Assembly: GCF_040499845.1 (NCBI RefSeq)
Contig: NZ_CP159342.1
Coordinates: 6,262,001-6,326,000, forward strand
Reading direction: 5' to 3'
Origin: Micromonospora sp. CCTCC AA 2012012
GTDB taxonomy: Bacteria > Actinomycetota > Actinomycetes > Mycobacteriales > Micromonosporaceae
Length of the DNA stretch: 64,000 nt
Shown: in pieces, positions 33,362 to 57,019 of the stretch
Layout: each line of letters begins with the position of its first letter
Position numbering within the stretch: position 1 is the first letter of the stretch
The notes under the pieces: model-generated
What the model was told of the DNA's origin: nothing
Databases searched by the model: none
Seen by the model: the letters and a program-made list of their open reading frames with translations, nothing else
Made by a program: the position numbers and the translations under genes

Positions 33362-33548
33362 CGGGGCTCCTTTCGATTGGCGGGTCGGGCGCTCCCAGCA
33401 TCGGATCCGGTCCGATCGGGTGTCTTCTCGGACCGTGCGGAGATCGTCACCGGTGATGGGTGGCCGGACATTGCGCACGCCAGGAGAACGTGTCGGGGCG
33501 GGTGGAACGGAAGCCTGGGGGAGCAGACGACTACCGCAGGAGGACCGG

Positions 33549-35909: not shown

Positions 35910-35984
35910 GGTCCGACCCTGCCCGTCGCCGGCCGCCCGGGTCCAACACCGGCTGCGGCCCGATCGACGCGTTCCCGTTGTGGG

Positions 35985-36914: not shown

Positions 36915-37006
36915 CCGGCCATCATGGCCCGCCGCGCCCCACCCGCGCGTCCCGCGCCGGGGGTGATCCGGTGCGCTCCACCGCGCGCCGAGGTCGGTGC
37001 GGCGGG

Positions 37007-37873: not shown

Positions 37874-38069
37874 TCGCTCTCCTCCTCGTCCGGGTGCGGC
37901 TGCTCACCGGTTCGACCGGACCCCCGCGCCCCGCACACTACGGACGCTGCGTCGCCCGCGTCGCGGCCGGCGGACCAACACCGCAAGATCCAAGAAGTTG
38001 GCTCCGTAAACCCGTGTTTGACTGACTGCCGAGCCGAATTCGGCGGTGTGAAACTGGGGGGCAATGCAC
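37874..38069. promoter_or_regulatory. Divergent control region ahead of the 13-gene operon
   Basis: 196 bases between divergent starts, A+T-richer at 37980-38060. TTGACT at 38018-38023 could be a -35 element, but I see no good -10 at the proper distance. This must contain the main promoter for the operon 38070-51982, as the following genes are nearly all overlapping. Confidence 0.4.
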
Positions 38070-40754
38070 ATGGTGGACAACTCCGCCCTGCTCGTCGACG
38101 ACGAATCCGTCCTCGTCGCCGAACCGGCATTGTTCGGGCGCAAATTCACCCGGCAGATCGAGTTGGCCGCCGCCGGATTCCGGGTGCCGCCGCTGGCCTG
38201 CGTGCCGGCGACCGTGTTCGACCGGGCGGTCGCCCCGGTGCTCGGTGACCCGGCGCTGCCCACCGGGCCGCCGGACGTACGCGCCGAGGAGCTGCGCAAG
38301 CGGGTGCTGGCCGGTGGTGTGCCGGACGAGCTGCGCCGCGTGCTCGACGAGCGCTTCGACGCCATCGCCGGGCCGGACGGGCTGGTCGCCGTACGCGCCT
38401 GCGTGGTCCCCGACGCCACCGATCCGGATTCCGGCGAGGATTCCGCCCAGGACCCGTTCGCGGGTCTCAGCGACAGTTTCCTCTATGTCCGGCGGGAGGA
38501 ACTGCCCGAGCGGGTGGCCGCGTGCTGGGCGTCGGCGTTCAATCCCGAAGCGGTTCTCTACCGCGCACACAAGAATATCGACCCGTTCGCCGCCCGGGTC
38601 GCCGTGGCGGTGCAGAGAATGGTGTGCGGCGAACGCTCCTTCGTCGTCTTCACCCGCGATCCGTTGAACGGTTCGGATCGCCGGGTGATTGCCGCCGCGT
38701 ACGGAATCGGCGAAGGAGTCGTGCAGGAGAAGGCGGACGTCGACCATTTCTTCGTCGACCCGGCGACCGGTGTCGTGGAGGCCCACGTGGCGGCCAAGTC
38801 GCGCGCGGTGGGCCGGGACCCGGCGAACCCGGCGGCCGGTCCGGTCCCCGTCGAGGTGCCGCCCGAGCTGGCGGAGCGACCGGTGCTGGACGACCCGCAG
38901 GCGCGGGAGATCGCCACGCTGGCCGGGGCGATCGCTGAGCACTTCGGCGCCCCGCAGGACATCGAGGGCACGATCACCGCCGACGGGGTGGTGCACGTGG
39001 TGCAGGCCCGGCCGATCGTGATCCCGACCGTCGCCGCACCCGTCGCGCAGATCCTCTGGGACAACAACAACACCACCGAGACGTTCCCCGGGGTGAGCTG
39101 CGCCCTGACGTACTCGGTGGGCCGCGAGCTGATGGAGGTCGGCTTCACCGACCTGTACCGGCGGATGGGTGTCCCCGAGGAGACCATCCGGCACAACAGG
39201 CCCCGGCTGCGGCAGATGATCGGCTACCTGGACGGACACGTCTACTACGCCATCGACAACTGGTACCACCTGCACGGGATGATGCGCTGCTTCCGCCCGC
39301 TCTGGAGCACCTGGGAGCAGGCGGTCGGCCTGGCCGGCCGGCACGACGAGCGCACCCCGCCGAACCTGGCGCAGACGATCGTCCACCTCGGAGAGATCGG
39401 GCTGCGGATGGCCGCCCACCCGCGCCGGGTACGGGACTTCCTCCGCTGGTGGGACGAGCGGCACGCCACCCTGGACGTGGCCGACCTGACGCCGTCGGAG
39501 GTGGTGGCGACCTATCGCCGCCTCTGGACGGAGGTCGGCGAGTGGTGGGGGGTCACGCTCGTCAACGGGGTGTTCCTCTTCGCCGCGACCTGGGCGGCCA
39601 ACGGCCTGCTGCGGCGCTGGGCGCCGGAGGCGGACCGCGCGGTCCTCAACGGCCTGCTCAGCGGCGGGAAGATGAACAAGTCGGCGCTGGCGGTGCAGTC
39701 CGCCGTCGACCTGGCCGCCCGCGCCGCCGCCGTACCGGAGCTGCGGGCCGCGCTGCTGGCCGACACCGACGCCCGCGAGCTGTGGGACGAGCTGGTCGCC
39801 GGCCGGTACGGCGACGACTTCGCCGAGGCGCTCCGCACCCACCTGCGGGAGTACGGCGATCGGGCGTTGCAGGACAACAAGATGGAGGCGATCACGCCCC
39901 GGGAGCAGCCGTGGACGGTGCTGCACTCGGTCCGCGCGTACCTGCGGCAGGGCCAGGACGTCGAGCGGAGCCTCTCCGCCGGTCGGGACGCGGCCCAGCA
40001 GGCCCGCCGCGAGCTGCGCCGGCACCTGCGCGACCCGGCCCGGCGGGCGCTGGTGCGGGGCGCCTTCGGCACCATGCGCACCTTCCTGCGGCTGCGCGAG
40101 GACATGCGGTTCCGGCGCAGCCAGCTGATGGGCGACCTGCGTGCGCTGCTGCTGCGGCAGGGCGATCACCTGGTCACGGCCGGCCGCCTCGACACGCGCC
40201 GGGACGTGCTCGACCTGACCGTCGAGGAGGTCCTCGGGGCGTTCGACGGCACCGCGCCCACCGCCGACCTGCGCGGGATGGCCGCCGTCCGGGCGGCGGA
40301 ACGCGCCGCGTGGACCGCCGCCGAGCTGACGCTGCCGGCGCGGTTCGCCACCGACGCCGACCGGCCGGTCACCGACGCGCTCGCGACGGTCGCCCCGGCC
40401 TCGGTGGCCGGGCCCGACGGCGAGGCGGTGCTGCGCGGACTGGCCTCCAGTTCCGGCATCGCGCGGGGCCGGGCGATGGTCGTCCTCGACCCGTCGGTGA
40501 CCGCGGACGAGACCCGCGACCGGATCCTGGTGGCCCGGGAGACCGACCCGGGCTGGCTGTTCCTGATGATGTCGGCGAAGGCGCTGGTGGTCGAGCGCGG
40601 CACCCTGCTGTCGCACACCGCGGTGACCGGCCGGCTGCTGGGCATCCCGACGGTGGTGGCGGTGCCGGGGGCCACCACGCTGATCCCCGACGGCTGCGAG
40701 ATCGAGGTGGACGGGGCCGCCGGCACCGTGCGGATCCTGGGGAGCGCCGGATGA
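38070..40754 (+). CDS. One-chain PEP-synthase/rifampin-phosphotransferase-like protein
   Basis: An 894-aa protein from ATG 38070, eight bases after GGGGGG; ATG 38064 is too close. The N-terminal ATP-grasp-like domain shows GRKFTRQIELAAAGFRVPP, QRMVCGERSFVVFTRDPLNG and DIEGTITADGVVHVVQARPI. The middle is a long helical domain. The C-terminal swivelling phosphohistidine domain has the catalytic His near 848 in GTLLSHTAVTGRL. The layout and length match rifampin phosphotransferase and PEP synthases, which pass a phosphate from ATP through His to an acceptor. The usual VRSSATAED nucleotide motif is replaced by VRACVVPDATD, so ATP use may be altered. It is the first gene of a 13-gene operon; the acceptor is unknown. 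Confidence 0.82.
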   Translation: MVDNSALLVDDESVLVAEPALFGRKFTRQIELAAAGFRVPPLACVPATVFDRAVAPVLGDPALPTGPPDVRAEELRKRVLAGGVPDELRRVLDERFDAIAGPDGLVAVRACVVPDATDPDSGEDSAQDPFAGLSDSFLYVRREELPERVAACWASAFNPEAVLYRAHKNIDPFAARVAVAVQRMVCGERSFVVFTRDPLNGSDRRVIAAAYGIGEGVVQEKADVDHFFVDPATGVVEAHVAAKSRAVGRDPANPAAGPVPVEVPPELAERPVLDDPQAREIATLAGAIAEHFGAPQDIEGTITADGVVHVVQARPIVIPTVAAPVAQILWDNNNTTETFPGVSCALTYSVGRELMEVGFTDLYRRMGVPEETIRHNRPRLRQMIGYLDGHVYYAIDNWYHLHGMMRCFRPLWSTWEQAVGLAGRHDERTPPNLAQTIVHLGEIGLRMAAHPRRVRDFLRWWDERHATLDVADLTPSEVVATYRRLWTEVGEWWGVTLVNGVFLFAATWAANGLLRRWAPEADRAVLNGLLSGGKMNKSALAVQSAVDLAARAAAVPELRAALLADTDARELWDELVAGRYGDDFAEALRTHLREYGDRALQDNKMEAITPREQPWTVLHSVRAYLRQGQDVERSLSAGRDAAQQARRELRRHLRDPARRALVRGAFGTMRTFLRLREDMRFRRSQLMGDLRALLLRQGDHLVTAGRLDTRRDVLDLTVEEVLGAFDGTAPTADLRGMAAVRAAERAAWTAAELTLPARFATDADRPVTDALATVAPASVAGPDGEAVLRGLASSSGIARGRAMVVLDPSVTADETRDRILVARETDPGWLFLMMSAKALVVERGTLLSHTAVTGRLLGIPTVVAVPGATTLIPDGCEIEVDGAAGTVRILGSAG

Positions 40755-41650
40755 TCCGCCGGTGGGGCCGCTACGTGGGGGCCGCCTACCGGCCGGCGGT
40801 GCAGATTCCGTACACGGTGTCCTGGGCGGTGGGGCTGACCGCGCTCTTCGCCACGGTGACCGCCGGGGTGGCCCGCTGGCGGCCCGGTGTCGACCTGCTG
40901 GTCACCACGGTCACGCTGATGGTGACGATGCTGCTGATCAGGGCGCTGGACGACCTGCGCGACCTGGAGTACGACCGGGCCCTGAACCCGGGCCGACCGC
41001 TGCCCAGCGGGCTGGTCCGCCCCGGCGACCTCTACACCCTGGTGGCGGTCGGCGGGGTGCTGCTGCTGGCGTTGAACGCCGGCCGGGGCGTCGCCCTGGT
41101 CGCGCTGGTCGTGCAGATGGTCTACACCGCCGCGGTGATCGTCGCGGAGCTGGTGGGCGGTTGGCCGGCCCCGGACCGGATCGGCCTCCAGGCCGCCGTC
41201 AACCTGCCGATCCTCAGCATGCTCAGCCTCTACGTCTACGCCGGGTTCCTCCGCGCCGAGCACGTGCGCCCGAGCGCCGCCGGGTTCGTCGCGGTCGCCG
41301 CGGTCACCCTGGGCGCCCTCGCGGTGGAGTTCGGCCGCAAGACCAGCCGCCGACCCCGCCCGGGGGAGCGGACGTACGCCACCATCCTCGGCGCGGCCGG
41401 CACCTCCGCCGCCGGGCTGGCCGCCGCGGTGCTGGCCACCACGGCCGTCGTGGTGATGGTGGCGCCCTGGCGGCCGGGTGCCGCCTGGGGCTGGCTGGTG
41501 CTGGCGCCGCTGGCCCTGCCGGTGATCTCGGCGGGCCGGTTCGCCGCCGGCGACAACCGCTGGCCGGCGCTGCCCACGATCGCCTACGTCCCGGCCATGT
41601 ACGGCAGTTTCCTGGTGGTCGGCTGGCTCACGAAGGGAGCACTCGGATGA
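40751..41650 (+). CDS. UbiA-type membrane prenyltransferase-like protein
   Basis: A 299-aa protein coupled to the preceding gene by an ATGA overlap. Eight to nine membrane helices are visible. The first Asp-rich motif of the UbiA superfamily is present as RALDDLRDLEYDRALNPGRPLPSG near residues 63-86, including the downstream NxxRPLxxG element. The second motif, normally DxxxD, reads EFGRKTSRRPRPGE, so a charged residue is kept but the Asp pair is not. The fold suggests transfer of an isoprenyl or other pyrophosphate-borne group to an aromatic or lipid acceptor, but the altered second motif leaves the reaction open. Membrane location. Confidence 0.78.
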   Translation: MIRRWGRYVGAAYRPAVQIPYTVSWAVGLTALFATVTAGVARWRPGVDLLVTTVTLMVTMLLIRALDDLRDLEYDRALNPGRPLPSGLVRPGDLYTLVAVGGVLLLALNAGRGVALVALVVQMVYTAAVIVAELVGGWPAPDRIGLQAAVNLPILSMLSLYVYAGFLRAEHVRPSAAGFVAVAAVTLGALAVEFGRKTSRRPRPGERTYATILGAAGTSAAGLAAAVLATTAVVVMVAPWRPGAAWGWLVLAPLALPVISAGRFAAGDNRWPALPTIAYVPAMYGSFLVVGWLTKGALG

Positions 41651-42273
41651 CCGCCTTCTGGACCCTGCTCGGCCCCGACTTCGCCGGCAAGTCCACCGCC
41701 CTGCGCCGACTGCGCCGCGAGCACGGGTGGCGGGTCGTGTCGCACGACGACGAGTTCCTGGGCGACCGGCCGCTGATCTCGACGCTGCGCCGCTGCTGGG
41801 TGGACCAGGCGCTGCGGCACGCGGGCACCCGGTACACCGCCGAGCTGGTGCTGTCGGTGATGCACCCGGTGATCCTGCACCAGCGGGACGAGCTGGACCG
41901 GCAGGCGACGGGGGAGGGCGGCCCGCTCGTCGTGGACTCGTCCTATTACAAGGTGCTGGCCGCCTGCACGCTGCTCGGCGTGACGGACGACGGCGTCTTC
42001 GACCGCTGGCGCGCGATGCGTCCGCCGTGCGGCGTCGTCTATCTGGACGTGCCGCCCGAGGTGACCTGGGAGCGGACCGGACCGCTGCGGGAGGTCAGCG
42101 CCTTCGAGCACTACGGCCCGACGCTGACCCGGGAGGGGTTCGTCGCCTTCCAGCGCGACCTGCGCGCCCTGATGCTGGAGCAGCTCGCCGACCTGCCGGT
42201 GACCATGGTGGACGGCGCCGCCCCGCCGGACGAGGTGCTCGCCAAAATCATCTCTGCGGTCGGTCGGTCATGA
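41647..42273 (+). CDS. P-loop kinase, thymidylate-kinase-like
   Basis: A 208-aa protein overlapping the UbiA-type gene by four bases. The Walker A loop is LLGPDFAGKST at residues 8-18; later segments YKVLAACTLLGV and VVYLDVPPEVTWERTG resemble thymidylate kinase and related dNMP-kinase folds, with the Asp-Val-Pro element of the base of the lid. No clear nucleoside-binding DRY/H motif is seen, so a nucleotide substrate is not certain. It could phosphorylate a small molecule for the pathway of this operon. Confidence 0.72.
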   Translation: MTAFWTLLGPDFAGKSTALRRLRREHGWRVVSHDDEFLGDRPLISTLRRCWVDQALRHAGTRYTAELVLSVMHPVILHQRDELDRQATGEGGPLVVDSSYYKVLAACTLLGVTDDGVFDRWRAMRPPCGVVYLDVPPEVTWERTGPLREVSAFEHYGPTLTREGFVAFQRDLRALMLEQLADLPVTMVDGAAPPDEVLAKIISAVGRS

Positions 42274-42899
42274 TCACCCACGACCGCCTCGCCGCCGACC
42301 TGCTCGCCGAACGCCTGACCTGGGTCGGGAACGACTCCGCCGGGGACGCCGACGCGACCGTCCTCGTCGTGCTGCGGGCGTTGGACCTGGTCGACCTGGT
42401 GCACGGCACGCGTGCGTTCGTGGCCGACCTGGACCCGGCCGACGCGGCGCGGTGGCGGCGGTCGTACACCCGGACCCGGTTCCTCTTCGGCAACCCGTCG
42501 AGCCTCGGCGACCAGCACGCCCCCCGGCGGTCGCGGCGCGCCACGGCCGCCTGGCTCGGGCCGTACCGGGACTCGACGCCCGGGGTGGCCCGACTGCTCA
42601 AGCCGGTCACCGGACGGATGCCGCCGCTGCCGCGGACGGTCCGGGTCCCCGGCATCGGGCGGGCCCGCCGGCTGGAGATCGCGATGGGCGCCTCCGTCGT
42701 GGACTACCTCGTGCACCTGCACCACACCCTCGCCGAAGCGGCGCTGATGGGCCGGCTCGCCCCGGAGGAGCCGCTGCTGCTGCGCCACCGCGCCGACCTG
42801 GCCGACCGGGCCGACAGCCCCGCCGCGTACGCCCGGGTGCTGCCCGACCCCGACGCACCCGACGGCCTCCGCCTGCACACCTGGCTCTCCCCCCGCTAA
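42270..42899 (+). CDS. Unrecognised protein of the 13-gene operon
   Basis: A 209-aa soluble protein coupled by an ATGA overlap to the kinase gene. I do not recognise a family. Visible features are an acidic-aromatic N-terminal half, an Arg-rich stretch APRRSRRATAAWLGPYRDSTPG in the middle, and VVDYLVHLHHTLAEAALMGRLAPEE with several His. No signal peptide or membrane helix is present. Codon use is the same as its neighbours, and the overlap shows it is a real gene expressed with them. Confidence 0.65.
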   Translation: MITHDRLAADLLAERLTWVGNDSAGDADATVLVVLRALDLVDLVHGTRAFVADLDPADAARWRRSYTRTRFLFGNPSSLGDQHAPRRSRRATAAWLGPYRDSTPGVARLLKPVTGRMPPLPRTVRVPGIGRARRLEIAMGASVVDYLVHLHHTLAEAALMGRLAPEEPLLLRHRADLADRADSPAAYARVLPDPDAPDGLRLHTWLSPR

Positions 42900-42908
42900 G
42901 GAATCGCC

Positions 42909-43784
42909 GTGGACATCACCAACTTCACCGAGTCCGACCTGGCCCGCCTCGAGGTGTCCCTGCGGCTGCGCGACCTGTCGGAGGCGTGCCGCCAGGCGGT
43001 CGCCGCCGAGGAGACCGCCGGCCCGGACGAGCCCGGCCTCCAGGCCCGCCTCCGGCTGCTCTGGGAATCCCAGGTGCCGCAGTTGCAGGACGCGATCGCG
43101 CGGCACGTCCGGATCCGCGGCGGGTCGTGGTCCGACATCGCCGCGCTCGGCGCGCTCGACGAGCAGGAGGCCCGCGAGCGGGCCGCCAACCCGGAGGCGC
43201 CGGTGGCGGGCGACCCGGTCGCCGAGGCCGCCGCCCTCGACGACTGGTACATGCGGCACGCCCAGCTGGAACCCCTGGCCCAGTTCCGCGACCCGTTCAG
43301 CCGGCTGCTCAGCGCCCACCCGGCCCAGGAGCACGAGTGCCTGATCTGCGTGAAGTACCGGGGCGGGACGCTGCCCGCGTACGGCGGGTACACCTCCCCG
43401 CCGGGCGGCTACCTGCTCGACGACGGCTGCTGGCGGGTCGGGCACGGGCCCACCCCGTACTGGCCCGCCGGGACGCTGCTGATCGAGTCGCACCGGCACT
43501 TCCTCGACCACGCCGAGATGACCCCGCACGAGGCCGCCACCATCGGCCCGCTGATCCAGCGCTTCGTCGGGCCGCTCAAGGAGGCGATGGACGCCCCCCG
43601 GGTGCACGTCTTCTCCTGCATGGAGGGCGCCGAGCACTTCCACACCTGGCTGGTGCCCCGGGTCGGCAAGGTGAACAGCGGCCGGGCCTTCATCGCCGCC
43701 CCCGGCCACTGCAGCATCCGCGAGGCGGAGGACGCGATCGCCCGGGTGCGCGCGGCACTCGCCCGGGCCGAGGCAGTCCGGTGA
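42909..43784 (+). CDS. HIT-like protein with N-terminal extension
   Basis: A 291-aa protein from GTG 42909, with AAGGA overlapping the preceding stop. The N-terminal ~90 residues are helical and include ARHVRIRGGSWSDIAALG, like a small helix-turn-helix found in actinobacterial proteins. The C-terminal part has a Cys pair in HECLICVKYRGG near 142 and a HIT-type His cluster GAEHFHTWLVPR near 240, matching the H-x-H-x core of HIT hydrolases/transferases although the third His is missing. HIT proteins act on nucleotide-alpha-phosphate bonds through a covalent His. Together with the kinase and PEP-type genes this suggests phosphate-transfer chemistry in the operon. Confidence 0.65.
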   Translation: MDITNFTESDLARLEVSLRLRDLSEACRQAVAAEETAGPDEPGLQARLRLLWESQVPQLQDAIARHVRIRGGSWSDIAALGALDEQEARERAANPEAPVAGDPVAEAAALDDWYMRHAQLEPLAQFRDPFSRLLSAHPAQEHECLICVKYRGGTLPAYGGYTSPPGGYLLDDGCWRVGHGPTPYWPAGTLLIESHRHFLDHAEMTPHEAATIGPLIQRFVGPLKEAMDAPRVHVFSCMEGAEHFHTWLVPRVGKVNSGRAFIAAPGHCSIREAEDAIARVRAALARAEAVR

Positions 43785-44920
43785 GCGGCGCCGGGGCACC
43801 GCCCGGGCGGCTGCTCCTCGCCCCGGTCACGGTCAGCCCCACCAAGCCGCTGACCCCGTCCCACCTGAAGCTGCTCCTGTCGGTGGACGTCCTGCACCGC
43901 GCCACGTCGACGCTGACCGACGTCACCTTCCTCTACCGGCCGCTCGCGCACGCCGGCAGCCGCCAGATCGCGGGGTTCTGGGAGTTCCTCGACCGGCGCC
44001 ACCCCGGCACCTCGTACGACGACTGGAGCGAGGAGCGGATCGGCGACGCGTACGGCGAGTTCCAGCGCGCCGAGCGCGTCCCGTACGCCCGGCTGGAGCC
44101 GCTGGTCCGGCGGGCCGCAGCCGGCTGGGTCCACCCGGTCAGCCGGCGGGTCGTCGACCTGTGGCACGACCACTACCGGCGGCTGGCGCTCACCGACCCG
44201 ATGGAGGCGCCCGGGCCGACGCCGATGCCGCTGGACGAGCTGATCGACCTGCTGCTGCGGCACGGGCTCTGCGTGGACGGCCGGCCCTTCGGCGCGCCGG
44301 TCTATCTCGACGCCACCCCGGCCGGTCTGCCGCTGCGCACACTCGTCGGCGCGGACGGGCACGCCAACTATCTCGCCTCCACGCTGGCCGAGCTGCTGCC
44401 GCTGCGCGCCGGCCACGACCACGTGGTGCTGCCGCACGACGTGGAGATCCGCACCGACTACCGGACCCTGGCGTACGTGCTGACCCGGCTCGGCACCCCG
44501 GTGTCGCGGATCGAGTTCCCCCGGGTGCCGCTGGACGGGACCGCCCGCGCCACCCGGTACGGCGGCTGGCACGCGTACACCGTCGACGCGCTGGCCGCGC
44601 GGGCCGCCGCCGACGGACCGGTGTTCGCCCTCGGGCTGCGGCTCTATCTGATCGCCGGGCTGGGCCGCACCGCCCGCGAGTCGTTCGACCGGCGGCAGCT
44701 CGACCGCTGGCTGCGCCGCGCCGAGCGGCTGCTCGCCGGGGGCGTCGGCGCCGCCGATCCCGTCGCGCTGGCCGCACTGGCCGGACGGCTCCCGTACGTG
44801 GACCCGTACCGCCTGGTCACCTCGATGCTCGGCCGCACGGGGGGCGCCGCCGCCGGTGACCTGCTCGCCGTGGTGCTGGGTGCCGACGCGTTCGCGCAGC
44901 CGATCCTGTCCGCGTCCTGA
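43781..44920 (+). CDS. Unrecognised protein, possible class I synthetase/nucleotidyltransferase-like fold
   Basis: A 379-aa protein from GTG 43781 overlapping the HIT stop. I cannot name the family with confidence. The N-terminal segment SPTKPLTPSHLKLLLSVDVL has the placement and composition of the HIGH-loop region of class I aminoacyl-tRNA synthetases (as in PTGPLHLGH), and GADGHANYLASTLAELLP is His-rich further on, so a class I nucleotidyl-transfer fold is possible. There is no membrane helix. This reading is a weak inference from pattern only; the gene is surely real from its coupling and codon use. Confidence 0.6.
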   Translation: MSGAGAPPGRLLLAPVTVSPTKPLTPSHLKLLLSVDVLHRATSTLTDVTFLYRPLAHAGSRQIAGFWEFLDRRHPGTSYDDWSEERIGDAYGEFQRAERVPYARLEPLVRRAAAGWVHPVSRRVVDLWHDHYRRLALTDPMEAPGPTPMPLDELIDLLLRHGLCVDGRPFGAPVYLDATPAGLPLRTLVGADGHANYLASTLAELLPLRAGHDHVVLPHDVEIRTDYRTLAYVLTRLGTPVSRIEFPRVPLDGTARATRYGGWHAYTVDALAARAAADGPVFALGLRLYLIAGLGRTARESFDRRQLDRWLRRAERLLAGGVGAADPVALAALAGRLPYVDPYRLVTSMLGRTGGAAAGDLLAVVLGADAFAQPILSAS

Positions 44921-44939
44921 GGCCGAGGGGAGACAGAGG

Positions 44940-45908
44940 ATGTCCGTCGTCGACGAGGGACCACCCCGGGTGGACCGGCTGCTGCTGCACCGGGTGCATC
45001 CGGAGGAGGCGTTCCTCCGGGGCGCGGTGGCGACCGGCCCGTCCTCCTTCGAGGCCGTGGCGCTGCTGCCGGCCGCGCACCCGCACTACCGGGGGCACAC
45101 CGGTCCCAGCCGGGACCGGGACCCGCTGCTGCTGCTGGAGTGCGCCCGGCAGGCCGAGACGTACGCGGCGCACGCCTTCTACGGCGTCGACACGGACGCG
45201 CGGTTCGTGCTGCGTACCTGGTCCGCCACCTTCGACCCGGCGGCGCCGGCGGGGGCGGAGGTGCGGCTGACCGGCACCACCAGCGGCGCGCGCCGGGTCG
45301 GCGACCGGTTGCGCGGGATGACGTACGACCTGGAACTGCGGGCCGGTGACGACCGGCTGGGCGCCGTCCGGATGGACGTCGACCATCCGAGCGCCGCCGC
45401 GTACCGGATGCTGCGCCGCCGCAAGCACCCCGGCGGCCTGCCCAGCTCCGACGACCTCGCGCCGACCCCCGGCCACCCGGTCGACCCGGCCCGGGTCGGC
45501 CGCCTGCGCGCCACCGACACGCTGTTGCAGGACGTCGCGACGACGGACGGCACGGTCACCGCCGTGCTGCGGGTGCCGGTGGAGAACCCCAGCCTCTTCG
45601 ACCACGCCCAGGACCACGTGCCGGCGATGGTGCTGATGGAGGCGGCCCGACAGGTCGCGGCGCTGGCGACGGCCGCCTGGGGCGGCCCGGCCGCCGACCG
45701 CACCGTGCTGACCGCCCTGACGGCGACCTTCGTCGACTACGCGGAGCTGGGCCCGCCGCTCGTCCTGGTCGCCGACCGGCCGCCCGGCGACGACCCGGTG
45801 CGGATCACCTTCACGCAGGCCGGCGCGGTGGTCGCCACGGCCCGGATCACGATGACCGCACCGCTGTCGCCCCGGGGGAGGCGGACGTGTCCCGCGCCGC
45901 GGTCCTGA
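44940..45908 (+). CDS. AfsA-type double hotdog protein (A-factor biosynthesis family)
   Basis: A 322-aa protein from ATG 44940. Two AfsA hotdog repeats are seen: HRVHPEEAFLRGAVATGP...RDPLLLLECARQAETYAAHAFYGV in the first half, and ENPSLFDHAQDHVPAMVLMEAARQVAALATAAW in the second. AfsA joins a beta-ketoacyl thioester to dihydroxyacetone phosphate on the way to gamma-butyrolactone signals; related proteins take part in methylenomycin-furan and other pathways. Here it is inside a biosynthetic operon with KAS III, ACP, KAS II and a HAD phosphatase, and not beside a receptor gene. That suggests a metabolic use of the reaction. It overlaps the KAS III start by 22 bases. Confidence 0.85.
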   Translation: MSVVDEGPPRVDRLLLHRVHPEEAFLRGAVATGPSSFEAVALLPAAHPHYRGHTGPSRDRDPLLLLECARQAETYAAHAFYGVDTDARFVLRTWSATFDPAAPAGAEVRLTGTTSGARRVGDRLRGMTYDLELRAGDDRLGAVRMDVDHPSAAAYRMLRRRKHPGGLPSSDDLAPTPGHPVDPARVGRLRATDTLLQDVATTDGTVTAVLRVPVENPSLFDHAQDHVPAMVLMEAARQVAALATAAWGGPAADRTVLTALTATFVDYAELGPPLVLVADRPPGDDPVRITFTQAGAVVATARITMTAPLSPRGRRTCPAPRS

Positions 45909-46918
45909 CCGGCCTGGGGGCGTACCTGCCGCCCACCGTGCTGCCCAACGACGAGCTGGCGTCGTGGTGGGACCGGGATCCGGAGTGGATCCGCAGCCGC
46001 ACCGGCATCGAGCGCCGGCACGTGCTCACGCCGGGCTCCGCCACCAGCGACCTGGCCGTCGAGGCGGGGCGGCGGGCCCTGAGCTGTGCTGGGGCGGACC
46101 GGGCCGGCGCGGTCGTCGTCGCCACCAACACCCCGGACCGGCTCAGCCCGGCGATCGCGCCGGACGTGGCGTACCGCCTCGGCCTGGACACGGTGGCCGC
46201 CGTCGACGTGAACGCGGTCTGCACCGGCTTCGTCTACGCGCTCGCCACCGGTGCCGGGCTGATCGCCGCGGGCGTGGCCGGCAGCGTGCTGGTGATCGGC
46301 GCCGACGCCTTCACCACCGTCCTCGACCCCGACGACCTGACCACCCGGCCGCTCTTCGGCGACGGCGCGGGCGCGGTGCTGCTGCGCGCCGGCACGCCCG
46401 ACGAGCCGGGGGCGCTGGGCGGGTTCGACCTGGGCAGCGACGGCGCCCGTCGCGACCTCATCGAGATTCCGGGCGGCGGCTCCCGGCAGCGCTCCGCCGG
46501 GCTGCCGGTCAAGGAGCAGGACACCTGGTTCCGGATGCAGGGCCGGGCCGTCTTCGCCCAGGCGGTACGGCGCATGTCGGCGTCCGCCGCGCGCGCCGCC
46601 GACCTGGTCGGCTGGCCGACCGGCGAGGTCGACCGGTGGGTGCTGCACCAGGCGAACGCACGCATCCTCGCCGCGGTCGCCCGGGAGATGGACGTGCCGG
46701 GCGACCGGTTCGTGTCGAACATCGCGGCGGTCGGCAACACCGTCGCCGCGTCCATCCCGCTCGCGCTGCGCGACGGGCAGGCCGACGGGACGCTGCGGGC
46801 CGGGCAGCGCGTCGTGCTGTCCGCCTTCGGCGGCGGGCTCACCTGGGGCTCGGCCGCCCTGCGCTGGCCGGAACTGCCCGGCGCCTCGGCCGTCGCGCCG
46901 GACCGCTGCGCACCCTGA
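45887..46918 (+). CDS. Ketoacyl-ACP synthase III (FabH-like)
   Basis: A 343-aa protein from GTG 45887 (GGGGGAGG upstream), overlapping the AfsA gene. The full Cys-His-Asn triad is present: Cys in AVCTGFVYALATG, His in VLHQANARI and Asn in AVGNTVAASIPLAL. It starts with TGLGAYLPPTVLPNDELA and SRTGIERRH, as in FabH. It should start acyl chains on the dedicated ACP that follows, or act as an acyltransferase like the KAS III-type enzymes of several natural-product pathways. The next gene is an ACP. Confidence 0.92.
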   Translation: MSRAAVLTGLGAYLPPTVLPNDELASWWDRDPEWIRSRTGIERRHVLTPGSATSDLAVEAGRRALSCAGADRAGAVVVATNTPDRLSPAIAPDVAYRLGLDTVAAVDVNAVCTGFVYALATGAGLIAAGVAGSVLVIGADAFTTVLDPDDLTTRPLFGDGAGAVLLRAGTPDEPGALGGFDLGSDGARRDLIEIPGGGSRQRSAGLPVKEQDTWFRMQGRAVFAQAVRRMSASAARAADLVGWPTGEVDRWVLHQANARILAAVAREMDVPGDRFVSNIAAVGNTVAASIPLALRDGQADGTLRAGQRVVLSAFGGGLTWGSAALRWPELPGASAVAPDRCAP

Positions 46919-46932
46919 CGAGGAGGTCGATG

Positions 46933-47172
46933 ATGAGTTCCATCCAGGACCGGATCACCCGGACGCTGGTCGAGGAGTTCCGGATACCGCCCGGAGCGAT
47001 CACGCAGGAGACGAGTTTCACCGATCTCGGCTTCGACTCGCTGGTCATCGTCGAGCTGGCGCTGGTCCTCGACCAGCGGTTCGGCGTCGCCCTCAAGGAC
47101 GGCGAGCTGGCCGAGACGATGACGCTCGCCGCCGCGGCCGACCTGCTGGCCGCCAAGGGCGCGGTGCCGTGA
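46933..47172 (+). CDS. Acyl carrier protein
   Basis: A 79-aa carrier protein. ATG 46933 stands six bases after AGGAGG; ATG 46930 is the alternative. The phosphopantetheine Ser lies in DLGFDSLVIVEL, followed by LDQRFGVAL and the usual helix three. It sits between KAS III and KAS II, so it carries the chain they build. No acyl-group specificity can be read. Confidence 0.93.
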   Translation: MSSIQDRITRTLVEEFRIPPGAITQETSFTDLGFDSLVIVELALVLDQRFGVALKDGELAETMTLAAAADLLAAKGAVP

Positions 47173-48398
47173 GCCGCCCCGCCGCCGAGGTCGCCGTCAC
47201 CGGTCTCGGGCTGGTCACCCCGGCCGGGATCGGCGTCGCCGCGAACTGGCGGCGGGTGCTCTCCGGCGTCTCCACCGCCGCCCCGGACGACCGGTTGCGC
47301 GACTGCCCGGTCGCCTTCAGCTGCCGGGTCCCCGACTTCGACCCGGACGCGCTGCTCGGCGGCTTCGCGGCCCGGCAACTGGCCCGTTACACCCAGCTCG
47401 CCGTGGTGGCGGTCCGGGAGGCGGTCGCCGACGCCGGCTGGGACCCGCGCACCTGGGACGGGGCCCGCGTCGCCGTGGTCTTCGGCACCTCCTTCGGGGG
47501 CGTGGAGTCGTACGAGTCGGCGTACGAGGCGCTGGCCGGTCGGGGCCCCCGGGCGGTGTCCCCGCTGACCATCCCGATGCACCTGGTCAACATGGTCGCC
47601 GGGCAGCTCGCCATCGACATCGGCGCACGCGGCCCGAGCCAGGTGACGGCGACCGCCTGCGCGTCCGGCGCCACCGCCGTCGGGACCGGCCGGGAACTGC
47701 TGCGGCGCGGCGACTGCGACATCGTGGTGGCCGGTGCCGCCGAGGCCGCCCTCACCCCGCTGGTCGTCACCGGCCTGGCCCGGATGGGGGCGCTCTCCGG
47801 CCGGGCCGACGCCCCCGCGGAGGCGTCCCGGCCGTTCGACCGGGACCGCGACGGCTTCGTGCCAGCCGAGGGCGCGGGCGCGCTGGTGCTGGAACGGGCC
47901 GCCGACGCCCGGGCCCGGGGACGGCGTCCCCGCGTCCTGGTCGGCGGCTACGGCGCGTCGACGGACGCGCACCACGTCACCAGCCCGGCCCCCGGCGGCG
48001 AGGGCATCGAGCGGGCCCTGCGGGAGGCGCTGCGGGACGCGGGCGTCGACGGCACGGACGTCGACCACGTCAACGCGCACGGCACCTCCACGCCGCTCGG
48101 CGACGTGGTCGAGGGCCGGATGCTGCGCCGGGTGCTCGGCGCGCGGGCGGCGGTCACCTCCACCAAGGGCGTGACGGGTCACCCGCTGGCCGCGGCGGGG
48201 GCCATCGAGGCGGCGTACACCGCCCTCGCGGTCGGCGCCGGCACCGCACCGCCCACCGCCAACCTCACGCACCTCGCGCCCGAACTGGACCTCGACGTCG
48301 TCGCGGGCGTGCCCCGCGACCTCCCCATCGACGTCGCGGTGAGCATGTCGATGGGTTTCGGCGGTCACAACGCCGCGCTCGTGCTCACCGCGACGTGA
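47169..48398 (+). CDS. Ketoacyl-ACP synthase II (FabF-like)
   Basis: A 409-aa protein whose GTG overlaps the ACP stop. The catalytic Cys is in TACASGATAVG, the His residues are in VNAHGTSTPLGD and TGHPLAAAGAIEA, and the start VAVTGLGLVTPAGIG is standard. All active residues are kept, so it is a true condensing enzyme and not a chain-length factor. With KAS III and the ACP it makes a minimal type II fatty-acid or polyketide set. No ketoreductase is encoded in the operon, so reduction, if any, must come from elsewhere, or the product is a beta-ketoacyl chain suited to AfsA. Confidence 0.93.
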   Translation: MSRPAAEVAVTGLGLVTPAGIGVAANWRRVLSGVSTAAPDDRLRDCPVAFSCRVPDFDPDALLGGFAARQLARYTQLAVVAVREAVADAGWDPRTWDGARVAVVFGTSFGGVESYESAYEALAGRGPRAVSPLTIPMHLVNMVAGQLAIDIGARGPSQVTATACASGATAVGTGRELLRRGDCDIVVAGAAEAALTPLVVTGLARMGALSGRADAPAEASRPFDRDRDGFVPAEGAGALVLERAADARARGRRPRVLVGGYGASTDAHHVTSPAPGGEGIERALREALRDAGVDGTDVDHVNAHGTSTPLGDVVEGRMLRRVLGARAAVTSTKGVTGHPLAAAGAIEAAYTALAVGAGTAPPTANLTHLAPELDLDVVAGVPRDLPIDVAVSMSMGFGGHNAALVLTAT

Positions 48399-48426
48399 CC
48401 ACCCCCGCCCGAAGGAGACGGCAGCC

Positions 48427-49143
48427 ATGAAGAAGATCCGACTCGTCGCCCTGGACAGCGACGGAGTCCTGCTGAACGACACCTACAGCCCGGTGATCGA
48501 GCGCTTCGTCACCCGGCACGGAGGCGAGTACACCGCCGCGGTGGAGCGCGGCGTCTGGGGCTCGCCGCAGCTCGCCGCGGGGCAGAACATGGCGCTGGCC
48601 TGCCGGCTGCCCTGGTCGGCGAAGGACACCATCGCGGCGTTCTTCCGCGAGCGCGACGACTACCTCGCGACGCACCCGGTGGAGGTCATGCCCGGCGTCG
48701 AGGAGCTGCTGGCGATGCTCCGCGACACCGGTGTCCGGATCACCTGCTACGGCGGCCGGCACCGGGAGTACACCTTCGACCGCTACCTCGGCCGCTACGC
48801 CCGCTACTTCGACGCCGACCAGCCGTACGTGGACGTGAACAACTTCCGTCCCGGGGTCAAGGAGATCGTCGAGGACTTCTTCGGCTACCGCTACGACGAG
48901 GTGCTCTTCGTCGACGACATCAACCGGGTCGCCGAGGTCACCAAGGCCCTCGGTGCCGGTTTCCTCGGCGTACCGGCGAGCATGCCGCACAACTTCCAGC
49001 GGGCCGAGATGGAGCAGACCGGGGTCCGGCACATGGTCGGCGACATCCGCGAGATCGACCGGGCGCTGATCGAGCGGCTCGACGAGGAACTCGCCGCCGG
49101 GGAGCACTGGGCGCCGGTCCCGGTCACCGGTGGTGCCCGGTGA
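48427..49143 (+). CDS. HAD-superfamily phosphatase-like hydrolase
   Basis: A 238-aa protein from ATG 48427 with GAAGGAGA upstream. Motif I is VALDSDGVLLND (nucleophile Asp and acid Asp), a mid-protein VDVNNFRPGVKEIVEDFF contains the Lys of motif III, and motif IV is VLFVDDINRVAEV. A cap domain fits between motif I and the VMPGVEELLAML segment. It is too short and lacks the partner domain to be an FkbH-type glyceryl transferase, so a small-molecule phosphatase is the better reading. It could remove the phosphate introduced by AfsA or by the PEP-type enzymes. Confidence 0.85.
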   Translation: MKKIRLVALDSDGVLLNDTYSPVIERFVTRHGGEYTAAVERGVWGSPQLAAGQNMALACRLPWSAKDTIAAFFRERDDYLATHPVEVMPGVEELLAMLRDTGVRITCYGGRHREYTFDRYLGRYARYFDADQPYVDVNNFRPGVKEIVEDFFGYRYDEVLFVDDINRVAEVTKALGAGFLGVPASMPHNFQRAEMEQTGVRHMVGDIREIDRALIERLDEELAAGEHWAPVPVTGGAR

Positions 49144-50978
49144 CGGCCGGAGCGCGCCGGTTCCCCTTCTTCGAGGAGGTGCCGGCGCCGGCCGGGGGCG
49201 AGGGCTGGGAGTCGATGTACCCCTACTATCTCGTCCCGGCCGCCGAGACCCGGGAGCAGGAGCAGGGCCGGCTCTGGTTCGCCGACACCATGCACTGGTC
49301 GCGCGGGTGCTACCCGCTGGGCAGCGTGATCGCCGAGGCGGCGTACCTGGGGGCCGGGCAGAACAGCACCCGGATCTTCGCGCTGCCCGGCTCGCTCGGG
49401 CTGGACCTGCGGGTGCAGCACGGCTACGTCTACATCGCCCCGGTGCCGGTCACCGACCCGGCCGAGGTGGCCCGGCGTACCGAGCTGTTCCAGGCCCGCG
49501 CCGGGCACTACTACCGCAACTGGGACGAGCTCTACGAGCGCTGGAAGAACGCCGTGCAGGGGCTGGTCGAGGACATGCGCGGGGTCCGGTTCCCGGCGCT
49601 GCCGGAGTTCGAGCCGATGGAGACGGTCACCGAGGCGCGCGGGCGCTCCGCCGGCTGGCAGCTGCTGGCCGACTTCCGCCGGGTGATCGACGACCTGTTC
49701 CTGGTCTGGCAGCGGCACTTCGAGTTCCTCAACCTCGGCTACGGCGGCTACATCGTCTTCTTCCAGTTCTGCCGGCAGGCCTTCCCGGAGATCCCGGACC
49801 AGGTGATCGCCCGGATGGTCGCCGGGATCGACGTGATCGCGTTCCGCCCGGACGACGAGCTGCGCCGCCTCGCCCGGCTCGCCTGCGAACTGGGCGTCGA
49901 CGACCTGGTCGACGGCACCGACGTGGACCGGTCGCGGGCGGCGCTGGCCGGCACCGAGCCGGGGCGGGCCTGGCTGGCCGCGTACGAGAAGGCCCAGGAC
50001 CCGTGGTTCTCCTACTTCGCCGAGTACGGGTTCACCCACGACCAGGACACCTGGCTCAGCAACCCGTCCATCCCGATGACCGGCATCGCCCGGTACGTGG
50101 CGCGGCTGCGCGAGGGCGCGGAGATCGACCGGCCGGTGGCCCGGCTGCGGGCCGAACGCGACGAGCTGGTCGCCGAGTACCGCGCCCTGCTCACCGAGGA
50201 GGAGGCCGCCCAGTTCGACGACCTGCTCCACCTGGCCCGGACGGTCTTCCCGTACATCGAGGAGCACAACATCTATGTCGAGCACTGGGCGCACGCGGTC
50301 TTCTGGGACCGGATGCGCGAGCTGGGCGACTTCCTGGTGACGTCGGGCTTCGCCGAGGCGGGCGACGACGTCTTCTATCTGCACCGGTTCGAGCTGGAGC
50401 AGGTGCTCAACGACGTCGCGCAGTCCTGGGCGATCGGGGTGCCGCCGCGCGGGGCCGGGCGCTGGGCGGCCGAGGTGCGCCGACGGCGGGGCGTGGTGGC
50501 CGCGCTGCGCGAGGCGGCGCCGGAGCCCGCGTACGGGACGCCACCGGAGACGATCACCGACCCGTTCGCGATCATGAACTACGGGATCACCGACGAGCAG
50601 GTGGCGGCGTGGCTGGGCCGCTCCGGCCCGGACGCCGGCGAGCTGACCGGCATCGGCGGCTCGCCCGGTGTGGTGGAGGGACCGGTCCGGGTGCTCCGCT
50701 CGGAACGCCTGCTGGACCGGCTGCGGCCGGGCGAGATCCTGGTCTGCCCGATCACCGCCCCGTCCTGGGGGCCGGCGTTCTCCGTGGCGGGCGGCGTCAT
50801 CACCGACATCGGCGGGCTGATGAGCCACGCCGCGATCGTGTGCCGCGAGTACGGGCTGCCCGCCGTCGTGGGCACCGGCGCGGCCACCACCACCCTGCGC
50901 ACCGGCGACCGGGTACGGCTGGACGGCCGGACCGGCGCGGTGACCGTGCTGGAGCGGGCCCCGGCGGTGGCGACGTGA
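49140..50978 (+). CDS. PpsA-like phosphohistidine subunit of a split PEP-synthase-type phosphotransferase
   Basis: A 612-aa protein whose GTG overlaps the HAD stop. It has no ATP-grasp domain. The first ~500 residues form a large helical substrate domain (for example TMHWSRGCYPLG and EEHNIYVEHWAHAVFWDRM). The last ~100 residues form a swivelling domain with ILVCPITAPSWGPAFSVAGG and the catalytic His near 563 in GLMSHAAIVCREYGLPAVVG. Size, order and lack of nucleotide domain match PpsA of phenylphosphate synthase, which works with a separate ATP-binding PpsB to phosphorylate phenol. The next gene is just such a PpsB-like protein, coupled by GTGA. An aromatic or alcohol acceptor is inferred. 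Confidence 0.82.
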   Translation: MTAGARRFPFFEEVPAPAGGEGWESMYPYYLVPAAETREQEQGRLWFADTMHWSRGCYPLGSVIAEAAYLGAGQNSTRIFALPGSLGLDLRVQHGYVYIAPVPVTDPAEVARRTELFQARAGHYYRNWDELYERWKNAVQGLVEDMRGVRFPALPEFEPMETVTEARGRSAGWQLLADFRRVIDDLFLVWQRHFEFLNLGYGGYIVFFQFCRQAFPEIPDQVIARMVAGIDVIAFRPDDELRRLARLACELGVDDLVDGTDVDRSRAALAGTEPGRAWLAAYEKAQDPWFSYFAEYGFTHDQDTWLSNPSIPMTGIARYVARLREGAEIDRPVARLRAERDELVAEYRALLTEEEAAQFDDLLHLARTVFPYIEEHNIYVEHWAHAVFWDRMRELGDFLVTSGFAEAGDDVFYLHRFELEQVLNDVAQSWAIGVPPRGAGRWAAEVRRRRGVVAALREAAPEPAYGTPPETITDPFAIMNYGITDEQVAAWLGRSGPDAGELTGIGGSPGVVEGPVRVLRSERLLDRLRPGEILVCPITAPSWGPAFSVAGGVITDIGGLMSHAAIVCREYGLPAVVGTGAATTTLRTGDRVRLDGRTGAVTVLERAPAVAT

Positions 50979-51982
50979 CCCCGTACGTCCGGCGGCTGGA
51001 CGACCCGGCGTGCCGCGACCCCCGGGAGTTCGGCGGCAAGGCCGCCGGCCTGGCGGCGCTGGCCGGGCTGGGGGTGGCGGTGCCGCCGGGCTTCGTGCTC
51101 GGCGCCGCCGCCTACCGTGCGTTCCTCGGCTCCGGCGACCTCCGCGCGGCCGTGGACGCCGGCCGGCCCGCCGCGGAGCTGGCCCGGCTGGCCGCCGTGA
51201 CGCCGGTGCCGGCCGCGGTCGCCGACGCCGTCCGGGACGCGTACGCCGCCCTCGGCGGCCCGTCCCCGGTCCCGGTGGCGGTCCGCTCCAGCGCCACCGC
51301 CGAGGACGGCGCGGCGGCCAGCTTCGCCGGCGGGTTCGAGTCCTGGTTGGACGTGACCGGCCCGGACGCCGTGGTGGCGCACGTGCACCGGTGCTGGCAG
51401 GCGGTCTTCGCGCCCCGGGTCGGCGACTACGCGCGGGCCGGCGGCGGGCACCCGGCCGCCATCGAGATGGCCGTCGTCGTGCAGCGGGTCGTCCGGGCAC
51501 GCGCGGCGGGGGTGATGTTCACGGTCAGCCCGGTGACCGGCGACCGGTCGCGGATCGTCGTGGAGGCGAGCTGGGGGCTCGGGCTGGCGGTGGTCGGCGG
51601 TGAGGTGACCCCGGACCGCTGGGTGGTGGACAAGGTGGGGCTGGAGATCGTCGGGTTCGAGGCGGGCGACAAGCGCATCGAGTACCGGCACGGCGGCGCC
51701 GCCACGCCCGTCGAGCCGGCCCGCCGGTCGGTGCCGTGCCTGACCGACGGGCAGGTGCTCGCCCTGGCCGGGCTGGGCAAGCGGCTGGAACGCGCCCAGG
51801 GCGCCCCGCAGGACGTGGAGTTCGTGGTCGGGGAGGGGGCCGACGCCGGCCCGGTGCTGGTGCAGTGCCGGCCGGAGACGGTCTGGTCCAACCGGCCCCG
51901 GCCGCCCCGGTTCACCGGCGGTGACCCGGCGGCCTGGCTCGGCGAGGCCGTCGGGCTGCTACCCGGCGGCCCGGCCCGCTGA
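50975..51982 (+). CDS. PpsB-like ATP-grasp subunit of a split PEP-synthase-type phosphotransferase
   Basis: A 335-aa protein from GTG 50975 overlapping the previous stop. It equals the N-terminal PEP/pyruvate-dikinase nucleotide domain alone. Visible motifs are FGGKAAGLAALAGLGVAVPPGFV, VRSSATAEDGAAASFAGGFE, RAAGVMFTVSPVTGD and PQDVEFVVGEG...VLVQCRPETVW. The motifs for ATP binding are intact, unlike those in the one-chain protein at 38070. In phenylphosphate synthase PpsB performs the ATP-dependent step that loads the His of PpsA, so this gene and 49140 probably make one enzyme. It is the last gene of the operon. Confidence 0.85.
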   Translation: MTPYVRRLDDPACRDPREFGGKAAGLAALAGLGVAVPPGFVLGAAAYRAFLGSGDLRAAVDAGRPAAELARLAAVTPVPAAVADAVRDAYAALGGPSPVPVAVRSSATAEDGAAASFAGGFESWLDVTGPDAVVAHVHRCWQAVFAPRVGDYARAGGGHPAAIEMAVVVQRVVRARAAGVMFTVSPVTGDRSRIVVEASWGLGLAVVGGEVTPDRWVVDKVGLEIVGFEAGDKRIEYRHGGAATPVEPARRSVPCLTDGQVLALAGLGKRLERAQGAPQDVEFVVGEGADAGPVLVQCRPETVWSNRPRPPRFTGGDPAAWLGEAVGLLPGGPAR

Positions 51983-56861: not shown

Positions 56862-57019
56862 TGGAATCTCCTCGCGGCGAGGGGTGATCGTCGTTCAGAA
56901 TGCACTCGTCGTGATTCACCGTCATCTCTGGAAATGCGCTGCGCCGAAGCCTGCGGAACGTTGACCGAAACGGTCGGTCAATGGTCGGATGGCTCGATCG
57001 CCGGCCGGAGGGGGTAGCC
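56862..57019. promoter_or_regulatory. Divergent promoter region of the orsellinate-type PKS and the decarboxylase
   Basis: 158 bases between divergent starts with ribosome binding sites on both sides (GAGGAGA before 56861 and GGAGGGGG before 57020). Shared control of PKS-methyltransferase and decarboxylase units is likely. The palindrome-like GACCGAAACGGTC at 56962-56974 could be an operator; this is a suggestion only. Confidence 0.45.

What the first reader, a model, noticed from the sequence alone, without database searches (positions are those of the whole stretch)
38070..51982. 13-gene coupled operon mixing PEP-synthase-type phosphotransfer, UbiA, nucleotide enzymes and a minimal type II acyl synthase
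Thirteen plus-strand genes, most joined by ATGA/GTGA overlaps, encode a one-chain PEP-synthase-like protein, a UbiA-type membrane transferase, a P-loop kinase, two unrecognised proteins, a HIT-like protein, an AfsA hotdog, KAS III, ACP, KAS II, a HAD phosphatase and a split PpsA/PpsB-like pair. Tight coupling means one pathway, and I know of none with this set. A model: KAS III/ACP/KAS II build an acyl chain, AfsA joins it to a phosphorylated three-carbon unit, HAD removes phosphate, the PEP-type enzymes phosphorylate an alcohol or phenol, and UbiA makes a membrane-linked product. The model is inference.
Basis: partly seen in the sequence, partly recalled or inferred. Interest (0 to 1): 0.85.

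Follow-up and report, generated by a model that had tools for sequence, protein, structure and literature searches.

The report
Salinipostin-like phospho-butyrolactone operon near enediyne genes
Thirteen coupled genes in an actinomycete form a real, conserved pathway that looks like an unrecognised branch of the salinipostin family of phosphate-carrying butyrolactone molecules, with an extra phenol-phosphorylating module, and it could yield a new type of bacterial signal or enzyme inhibitor.

Summary
In detail: 13 plus-strand genes fill 38064-51982, and 7 of 12 junctions are 4-bp overlaps. All 13 occur in the same order in two Actinophytocola genomes, genes 1-11 in three more genomes. The core, AfsA + one-chain PEP-synthase-type phosphotransferase + UbiA, is also found in the Salinispora salinipostin (spt) operon, and in 11 of 11 genomes of a class sample with a strong UbiA hit. 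Best reading: a phospho-gamma-butyrolactone pathway of a new subtype. KAS III/ACP/KAS II feed AfsA; PEP-synthase type and UbiA add the phosphoester. Genes 12-13 are of phenylphosphate-synthase type (45% and 37% identical to a PpsA/PpsB pair before ppcBDAG) and occur in 3 of 3 loci with an orsellinate-type PKS and amidohydrolase alongside, 0 of 3 without. One 'unrecognised' gene is a stand-alone arginyl-tRNA-synthetase-like core, the other DUF6182. An enediyne PKS lies within 61 kb in 3 of 5 judgeable genomes. Reactions and product are inferred.

The parts
38064..40754 (+). g1: one-chain PEP-synthase-type phosphotransferase (PPDK_N + PEP-utilizer mobile domain with SHxA His); core gene shared with spt
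40751..41650 (+). g2: UbiA-superfamily membrane protein; first Asp motif DDxRDxxYDR kept, EFxRK where a second Asp motif is expected; core gene shared with spt
41647..42273 (+). g3: P-loop small-molecule/nucleotide kinase-like protein (weak family scores)
42270..42899 (+). g4: DUF6182 protein, function unknown; partner of g6 in many loci; in one open frame with g5 in L023
42909..43784 (+). g5: HIT-like protein with CxxC and HFHxW
43781..44920 (+). g6: stand-alone arginyl-tRNA-synthetase-like catalytic core with altered HIGH/KMSKS stretches
44940..45908 (+). g7: AfsA/ScbA-type butyrolactone synthase (two hotdog stretches)
45887..46918 (+). g8: KAS III with Cys/His/Asn motifs
46930..47172 (+). 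g9: acyl carrier protein (DSL)
47169..48398 (+). g10: KAS II with Cys/His/His motifs
48427..49143 (+). g11: HAD phosphatase-like protein (DxD); nearest solved relatives HDHD1 and pseudouridine-5'-phosphatase
49140..50978 (+). g12: PpsA-type phosphotransferase subunit, 45% identical over its length to the PEP-utilizing protein before ppcBDAG in Azoarcus KH32C
50975..51982 (+). g13: PpsB-type ATP-binding subunit, 37% identical to the Azoarcus partner
51997..53013 (-). associated O-methyltransferase; similar genes lie beside the operon in L028 (41%) and L031 (44%), and a partial 37% match in G208 contig C20
53010..56861 (-). associated iterative PKS, KS-AT-DH-ACP, orsellinate-synthase-like layout (product inferred); relatives beside both other 13-gene operons
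56981..58018 (+). associated Amidohydro_2 protein (possible decarboxylase, inferred); 63% identical genes beside both other 13-gene operons

Best explanation
The operon encodes a phospho-gamma-butyrolactone pathway, a distinct subtype of the salinipostin (spt) kind. KAS III, ACP and KAS II make a dedicated beta-ketoacyl-ACP; AfsA joins it to a glycerone-phosphate-type C3 phosphate to give a butenolide or butyrolactone phosphate, and the HAD protein removes that phosphate (inferred from family chemistry). The one-chain PEP-synthase-type enzyme uses ATP and its mobile histidine domain to phosphorylate an alcohol, and with the UbiA protein installs the phosphoester (shared core triad shown, reaction inferred). 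In the 13-gene version the PpsA/PpsB pair phosphorylates a phenol made by the neighbouring orsellinate-type PKS and perhaps freed by the amidohydrolase, so that the product carries or includes an aryl phosphate (inferred). Kinase, DUF6182, HIT and the ArgRS-like core form a sub-module whose step is unknown; activation by adenylylation is my guess.
For: The spt operon was found in G175 (contig 5,183,331 bp): nine genes over 11.1 kb, matching the published gene count and size (RS20900-RS20940, 11.1 kb; passage of PMC7888443). It holds PEP-synthase type, UbiA and AfsA, 30, 32 and 38% identical to g1, g2 and g7. In a class sample 17 of 394 genomes had a UbiA hit; the 11 strong ones (E 1.2e-40 or better, window included) all hold PEP-synthase type and an AfsA homologue in the same locus (the AfsA of L181 is weak, E 6.6e-10); the 6 weak ones (E 3e-5 or worse) were not examined. 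All 13 genes in L027 and L028, genes 1-11 in G169, G211 and G206. g12/g13 match a pair lying before a CBS protein and ppcBDAG. PKS and amidohydrolase relatives are adjacent in 3 of 3 loci with g12/g13. G169 and G211 have no close g12 (only partial matches) and no close PKS (best 42-43%); G206 has neither in the 200 kb examined. KAS, ACP, HAD, kinase and mobile-domain motifs are intact.
Against: The operon lacks relatives of spt's acyl ligase, DUF6001-like, reductase and NDK-like genes. The window's luciferase-like gene 37007-37873 is 32% identical over 168 residues to the spt one, stands divergent, and had no match beside the operon in L027, L028 or L031. Four relatives have an aldo/keto reductase beside the operon, the window has none. 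AfsA scores just below NCBIfam's equivalog cut-off. The UbiA lacks the usual second Asp motif (that it is usual is recalled). No GBL-receptor gene was recognised among the window proteins given to Pfam. Nothing shows a phosphorylated product. The PpsAB/PKS correlation rests on six loci (Fisher p 0.05), one of them examined over 200 kb only.
Confidence: 0.55

Rival explanations
1. The operon makes an ordinary or mildly decorated gamma-butyrolactone autoregulator that switches on the neighbouring enediyne cluster; the phosphotransferases act on intermediates and no phosphoester is released.
For: AfsA present. The enediyne PKS lies 11 kb from the operon in the window, 24 kb in G211 and 61 kb in G169, where other relatives of window enediyne-region genes begin about 11 kb away. 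A different AfsA/PEP-synthase/UbiA set lies about 17 kb from an enediyne PKS in G157. The enediyne marker DUF1702 is in 5 of 6 genomes (the negative one, G210, has only g1-g6), against 22 of 388 over the cut-off in a class sample.
Against: G206 has genes 1-11 without enediyne genes in the 200 kb examined. In G209 the enediyne genes are on another contig and none on the 89.9-kb operon contig, of which all but 1 kb was examined; likewise none on the 36-kb operon contig of G208. Classical autoregulator synthesis needs few genes [recalled]. No GBL-receptor gene was recognised in the window proteins given to Pfam.
Confidence: 0.2
2. The operon and the orsellinate-type PKS build a side group of the enediyne itself.
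For: Proximity in three genomes; aromatic polyketide appendages made by an iterative PKS with an O-methyltransferase are known from enediynes [recalled]; PKS and O-methyltransferase follow g13.
Against: The 13-gene set plus PKS lies on a contig without recognised enediyne genes in A. xinjiangensis, and genes 1-11 occur without enediyne genes nearby in G206.
Confidence: 0.1
3. The operon makes a phospholipid- or isoprenoid-like membrane product; AfsA was recruited for another acyl condensation, and UbiA is a true prenyl or alkyl transferase using a diphosphate made by the kinases.
For: UbiA keeps the first Asp motif; its best solved profile match is digeranylgeranylglyceryl phosphate synthase (E 0.00058); kinases accompany the g6/DUF6182 pair in several contexts, in one with an HMG-CoA reductase.
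Against: The triad is shared with an operon whose reported product is salinipostin, a phosphotriester related to butyrolactones.
Confidence: 0.1

Closest known systems
Salinipostin spt operon of Salinispora and spt-like loci elsewhere
   Same: AfsA, one-chain PEP-synthase-type enzyme, UbiA and an ACP in one operon
   Different: spt has acyl ligase, DUF6001-like, NAD_binding_4 reductase, NDK-like and luciferase-like genes; the window operon has KAS III/KAS II, HAD, kinase, DUF6182, HIT, ArgRS-like core and PpsA/PpsB instead
A-factor-type gamma-butyrolactone biosynthesis (AfsA/ScbA/BarX)
   Same: AfsA of the ScbA/BarX family (194.4 bits)
   Different: Score just below NCBIfam's cut-off of 200; dedicated acyl supply and two PEP-type phosphotransfer systems; no receptor gene recognised
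Phenylphosphate synthase (PpsAB) of anaerobic phenol degraders
   Same: Two subunits of matching layout; 45% and 37% identity to the pair before ppcBDAG in Azoarcus KH32C
   Different: No CBS-domain third subunit and no phenylphosphate carboxylase; placed in a biosynthetic operon
Arginyl-tRNA synthetase
   Same: g6 aligns to its catalytic core from HIGH to KMSKS (hhalign probability 96.4, E 1.2e-9, 279 columns)
   Different: 379 aa, no counterpart of the N-terminal and anticodon-binding parts; HIGH stretch reads TPSH, KMSKS stretch RATRYGG; the genome has two ArgRS genes over the family cut-off

Membership tests
Salinipostin spt-type cluster | AfsA + PEP-synthase type + UbiA in one operon | tested here: met
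Salinipostin spt-type cluster | full nine-gene spt complement | tested here: not met
   operon has no relative of the acyl ligase, DUF6001-like, reductase or NDK-like genes
Salinipostin spt-type cluster | phosphotriester butyrolactone product | not testable with these tools
   needs extraction with MS/NMR
AfsA-type butyrolactone synthesis | AfsA hotdog protein, two hotdog stretches | tested here: met
   PF03756 over its cut-off, two stretches
AfsA-type butyrolactone synthesis | NCBIfam equivalog cut-off for ScbA/BarX | tested here: not met
   194.4 bits against 200
Phenylphosphate synthase | split PEP-utilizer + PPDK_N pair homologous to PpsA/PpsB, with mobile-domain His | tested here: met
Phenylphosphate synthase | CBS-domain third subunit and phenylphosphate carboxylase alongside | tested here: not met
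   no such family among g1-g13 or the flanking proteins given to Pfam
Phenylphosphate synthase | phosphorylates a phenol | not testable with these tools
   needs an assay
Arginyl-tRNA synthetase | catalytic-core homology | tested here: met
   hhalign E 1.2e-9 to 25 ArgRS; 24 CysRS gave probability 4.3
Arginyl-tRNA synthetase | HIGH and KMSKS signatures plus anticodon-binding domain | tested here: not met
   stretches altered; 379 aa align to the core only
UbiA prenyltransferase | two Asp-rich motifs (recalled) | tested here: not met
   first motif kept; EFxRK in place of the second in 5 of 5 aligned sequences
Enediyne biosynthetic cluster | operon always inside or beside an enediyne PKS cluster | tested here: not met
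   near in G000, G169, G211; not near in G206 and G209; G208 undecided

The most novel reading that the evidence does not exclude
A composite pathway in which a phenol made by an orsellinate-type PKS is phosphorylated by a phenylphosphate synthase, an enzyme known from anaerobic phenol degradation, and built into an aryl-phosphotriester butyrolactone, with a repurposed arginyl-tRNA-synthetase core and DUF6182 doing an activation step new to natural-product chemistry.
Probability: 0.25. Interest if true: 0.8.

Novelty: new variant of a known kind. Interest (0 to 1): 0.6.

Why it matters
Cyclipostins inhibit serine hydrolases and mycobacteria, and salinipostin A is a potent antimalarial (PMC6681047, passages). 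A second operon type that keeps only the AfsA/PEP-synthase/UbiA triad points to the genes most likely needed for the phosphoester. The ArgRS-like core with DUF6182, clustered here in 58 loci besides the window and in several gene contexts, is a family for which I found no description. Proximity to enediyne genes in three genomes makes a link between a phospho-butyrolactone and enediyne production testable.

Tried and rejected
Structure prediction for g6 and g4 was not available, so the claim for g6 rests on sequence profiles; DUF6182 had only weak ribosomal-protein matches among solved structures (best E 0.0017). A single-sequence UbiA scan of genome contigs confirmed no relative, UbiA had no match among plasmids and g6 one. 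I first took the genes at 32540-34714 for general chromosomal genes; homologues in the enediyne-linked regions of G169, G211 and G157 spoke against that. I suspected that G208 contigs C20 and C7 meet inside the PKS gene, which would link operon and enediyne genes there; the ends do not overlap, so I dropped it. The first hhalign run used some wrong reading frames (ArgRS 70.5, CysRS 0.2) and was repeated with frames chosen by BLAST (96.4 and 4.3). Chance assembly was rejected on synteny. Papers: Kudo 2020 is not held, recalled only; Creamer 2021 is not held, seen only as a reference-list entry in PMC12838356. PMC8609351, PMC7888443, PMC6681047, PMC11095149 and PMC12838356 were seen as passages; all others as search listings. 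No listed title or abstract start in searches described this operon, but lists were capped (one search showed 8 of 5,397, 30 of 64), so this is weak; DUF6182 was in no held paper.
Full report
Observation. Genes g1-g13 occupy 38064-51982 on the plus strand. Seven of 12 junctions are 4-bp overlaps; the others are +9, +19, -22, +11 and +28 bp. Families: g1 PEP-synthase type, g2 UbiA-like, g3 P-loop kinase-like, g4 DUF6182, g5 HIT-like, g6 (below), g7 AfsA, g8 KAS III, g9 ACP, g10 KAS II, g11 HAD, g12 PEP-utilizer, g13 PPDK_N. The calls for g2, g3 and g5 rest on weak scores for the window copy. Motifs of the KAS enzymes, ACP, HAD and kinase and the mobile-domain histidines of g1 and g12 are present.

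Conservation. A scan of named genomes with a g6 alignment gave 56 loci, one of them (L082) a 24-residue match. Mapping the 13 proteins: all 13 in order in Actinophytocola sp. MAG Dino_bin25 (L027) and A. xinjiangensis (L028); g1-g11 in Kitasatospora sp. SUK 42 (L031); g1-g6 in Streptomyces silaceus (L029), with a P450-like gene before g6 and an AfsA-family gene in front; g4-g6 on a short contig of Streptosporangium minutum (L030). In G169 g4 and g5 are one open frame. So g1-g11 is a conserved unit and g12-g13 an extension.

Relation to spt. In the genus search 11 of 160 genomes had the UbiA. Seven of them had a more distant copy (31-33% identity); in the five of these seven that I fetched, PEP-synthase type, UbiA and AfsA lie together. 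One of the five, G175 (5,183,331 bp; recalled as the size of S. tropica CNB-440), has nine genes over 11.1 kb, as the table in PMC7888443 gives for spt. Pfam there: PEP-synthase type, AMP-binding, DUF6001-like (below cut-off), ACP, NAD_binding_4, NDK, UbiA, luciferase-like, AfsA. In a class sample 17 of 394 genomes had a UbiA hit. The ten strong ones besides the window were fetched: one of window type (g1-g11), five spt-like, three with AfsA/PEP-synthase/UbiA and a P450-like gene, one with PEP-synthase/UbiA and a weak AfsA match. The six weak ones were not examined. The triad is thus the shared core of several operon types.

The extra module. g12 has relatives covering at least 80% of it in 10 plasmid records; I looked at three. 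In Azoarcus KH32C the pair lies before a CBS protein and ppcBDAG, i.e. a phenylphosphate synthase locus; in Rhodococcus oxybenzonivorans and Thermomicrobium the pair is also adjacent but in other contexts. Identity to the Azoarcus pair is 45% (g12) and 37% (g13). In the window an O-methyltransferase, a KS-AT-DH-ACP PKS and an Amidohydro_2 protein follow g13. A PKS relative lies beside the operon in A. xinjiangensis (66%) and, cut by the contig end, in the MAG (78% over residues 4-302, 51% over 301-564); the amidohydrolase (63%) is near it in both. G169 and G211, searched whole, have neither a close g12 nor a close PKS (the match list was cut, but best first); G206 has neither in the 200 kb examined. 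That the PKS makes orsellinate is inferred from its domain layout.

g6. Pfam gives no hit up to E 10 for four family members. A profile of 39 relatives finds a Pyrococcus ArgRS first among solved structures (E 0.0046) and aligns to 25 ArgRS with hhalign probability 96.4, E 1.2e-9, over 279 columns; controls: CysRS 4.3, DUF6182 0.3, UbiA and HIT 0.1. A first attempt with poorer frames gave 70.5 and 0.2. The family was clustered in 59 loci including the window; the cluster holding DUF6182 in 49 loci, GH3 in 47, and kinases of different clusters in many (GH3, HMG-CoA reductase with APH, weak thymidylate- and guanylate-kinase matches by Pfam on representatives). Lysobacter loci carry it too, with a DUF6182 protein in the one tested. 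Function unknown; adenylylation is a guess.

Enediyne neighbourhood. The window holds an enediyne-type PKS with DUF1702 and UnbV-family genes. DUF1702 is in 5 of 6 genomes searched and in 22 of 388 of a class sample over the cut-off. Local mapping puts the enediyne PKS 11 kb from the operon in the window, 24 kb in G211, 61 kb in G169; no enediyne relatives in the 200 kb examined in G206; on other contigs in G209 and G208. A different AfsA/PEP-synthase/UbiA set in G157 is also close to one, while the same type in G357 is on another contig than its DUF1702 genes. A Fisher test of 5/6 against 22/388 gives 6e-6, but it sets G206 as negative on 200 kb only, ignores kinship, and DUF1702 need not mean an enediyne in each genome. 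I take it as suggestive.

Verdict. A real, conserved operon; a new variant of the salinipostin kind of pathway, not a category of its own on present evidence. Shown: gene content, synteny, shared triad, PpsAB homology, ArgRS-core homology, proximity. Inferred: each reaction and the product.

Noticed in passing
L006, L007, L032-L081: A g6-like ArgRS-core protein with DUF6182, GH3 and various kinases recurs in Streptomyces, Frankia, Actinoplanes, Lysobacter and others, in at least three gene contexts, one with an HMG-CoA reductase/APH protein.
   Followed up: partly
window 767-32484: Enediyne-type region: HpaB hydroxylase, AMP-binding/ACP protein, P450s, two CMD proteins, DUF1702 (a second DUF1702 match overlaps my call of the PKS start at 20742, so that start is probably too early), enediyne-type PKS, UnbV-family protein.
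   Followed up: partly
L025 (G157:C1:1247000-1266500) with flanks L236-L238: A different AfsA/PEP-synthase/UbiA/P450/nitroreductase set lies about 17 kb from an enediyne PKS in another genome of the genus.
   Followed up: partly
L023:10627-12231: DUF6182 and HIT-like proteins form one open frame of 534 aa in G169.
   Followed up: no
G000:C1:6244034-6247522, outside the window: A second PKS of the same kind (48% identical to window 53010-56861) ends about 14 kb before the window's left edge.
   Followed up: no
window 34674-37873, minus strand: MFS transporter, LysR regulator and luciferase-like monooxygenase divergent from the operon; the last is 32% identical over 168 residues to the spt luciferase-like protein and has a 36% match near the operon in G169.
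   Followed up: partly
L023, L027, L028, L031: An aldo/keto reductase lies beside the operon in four relatives but none is in the window.
   Followed up: partly
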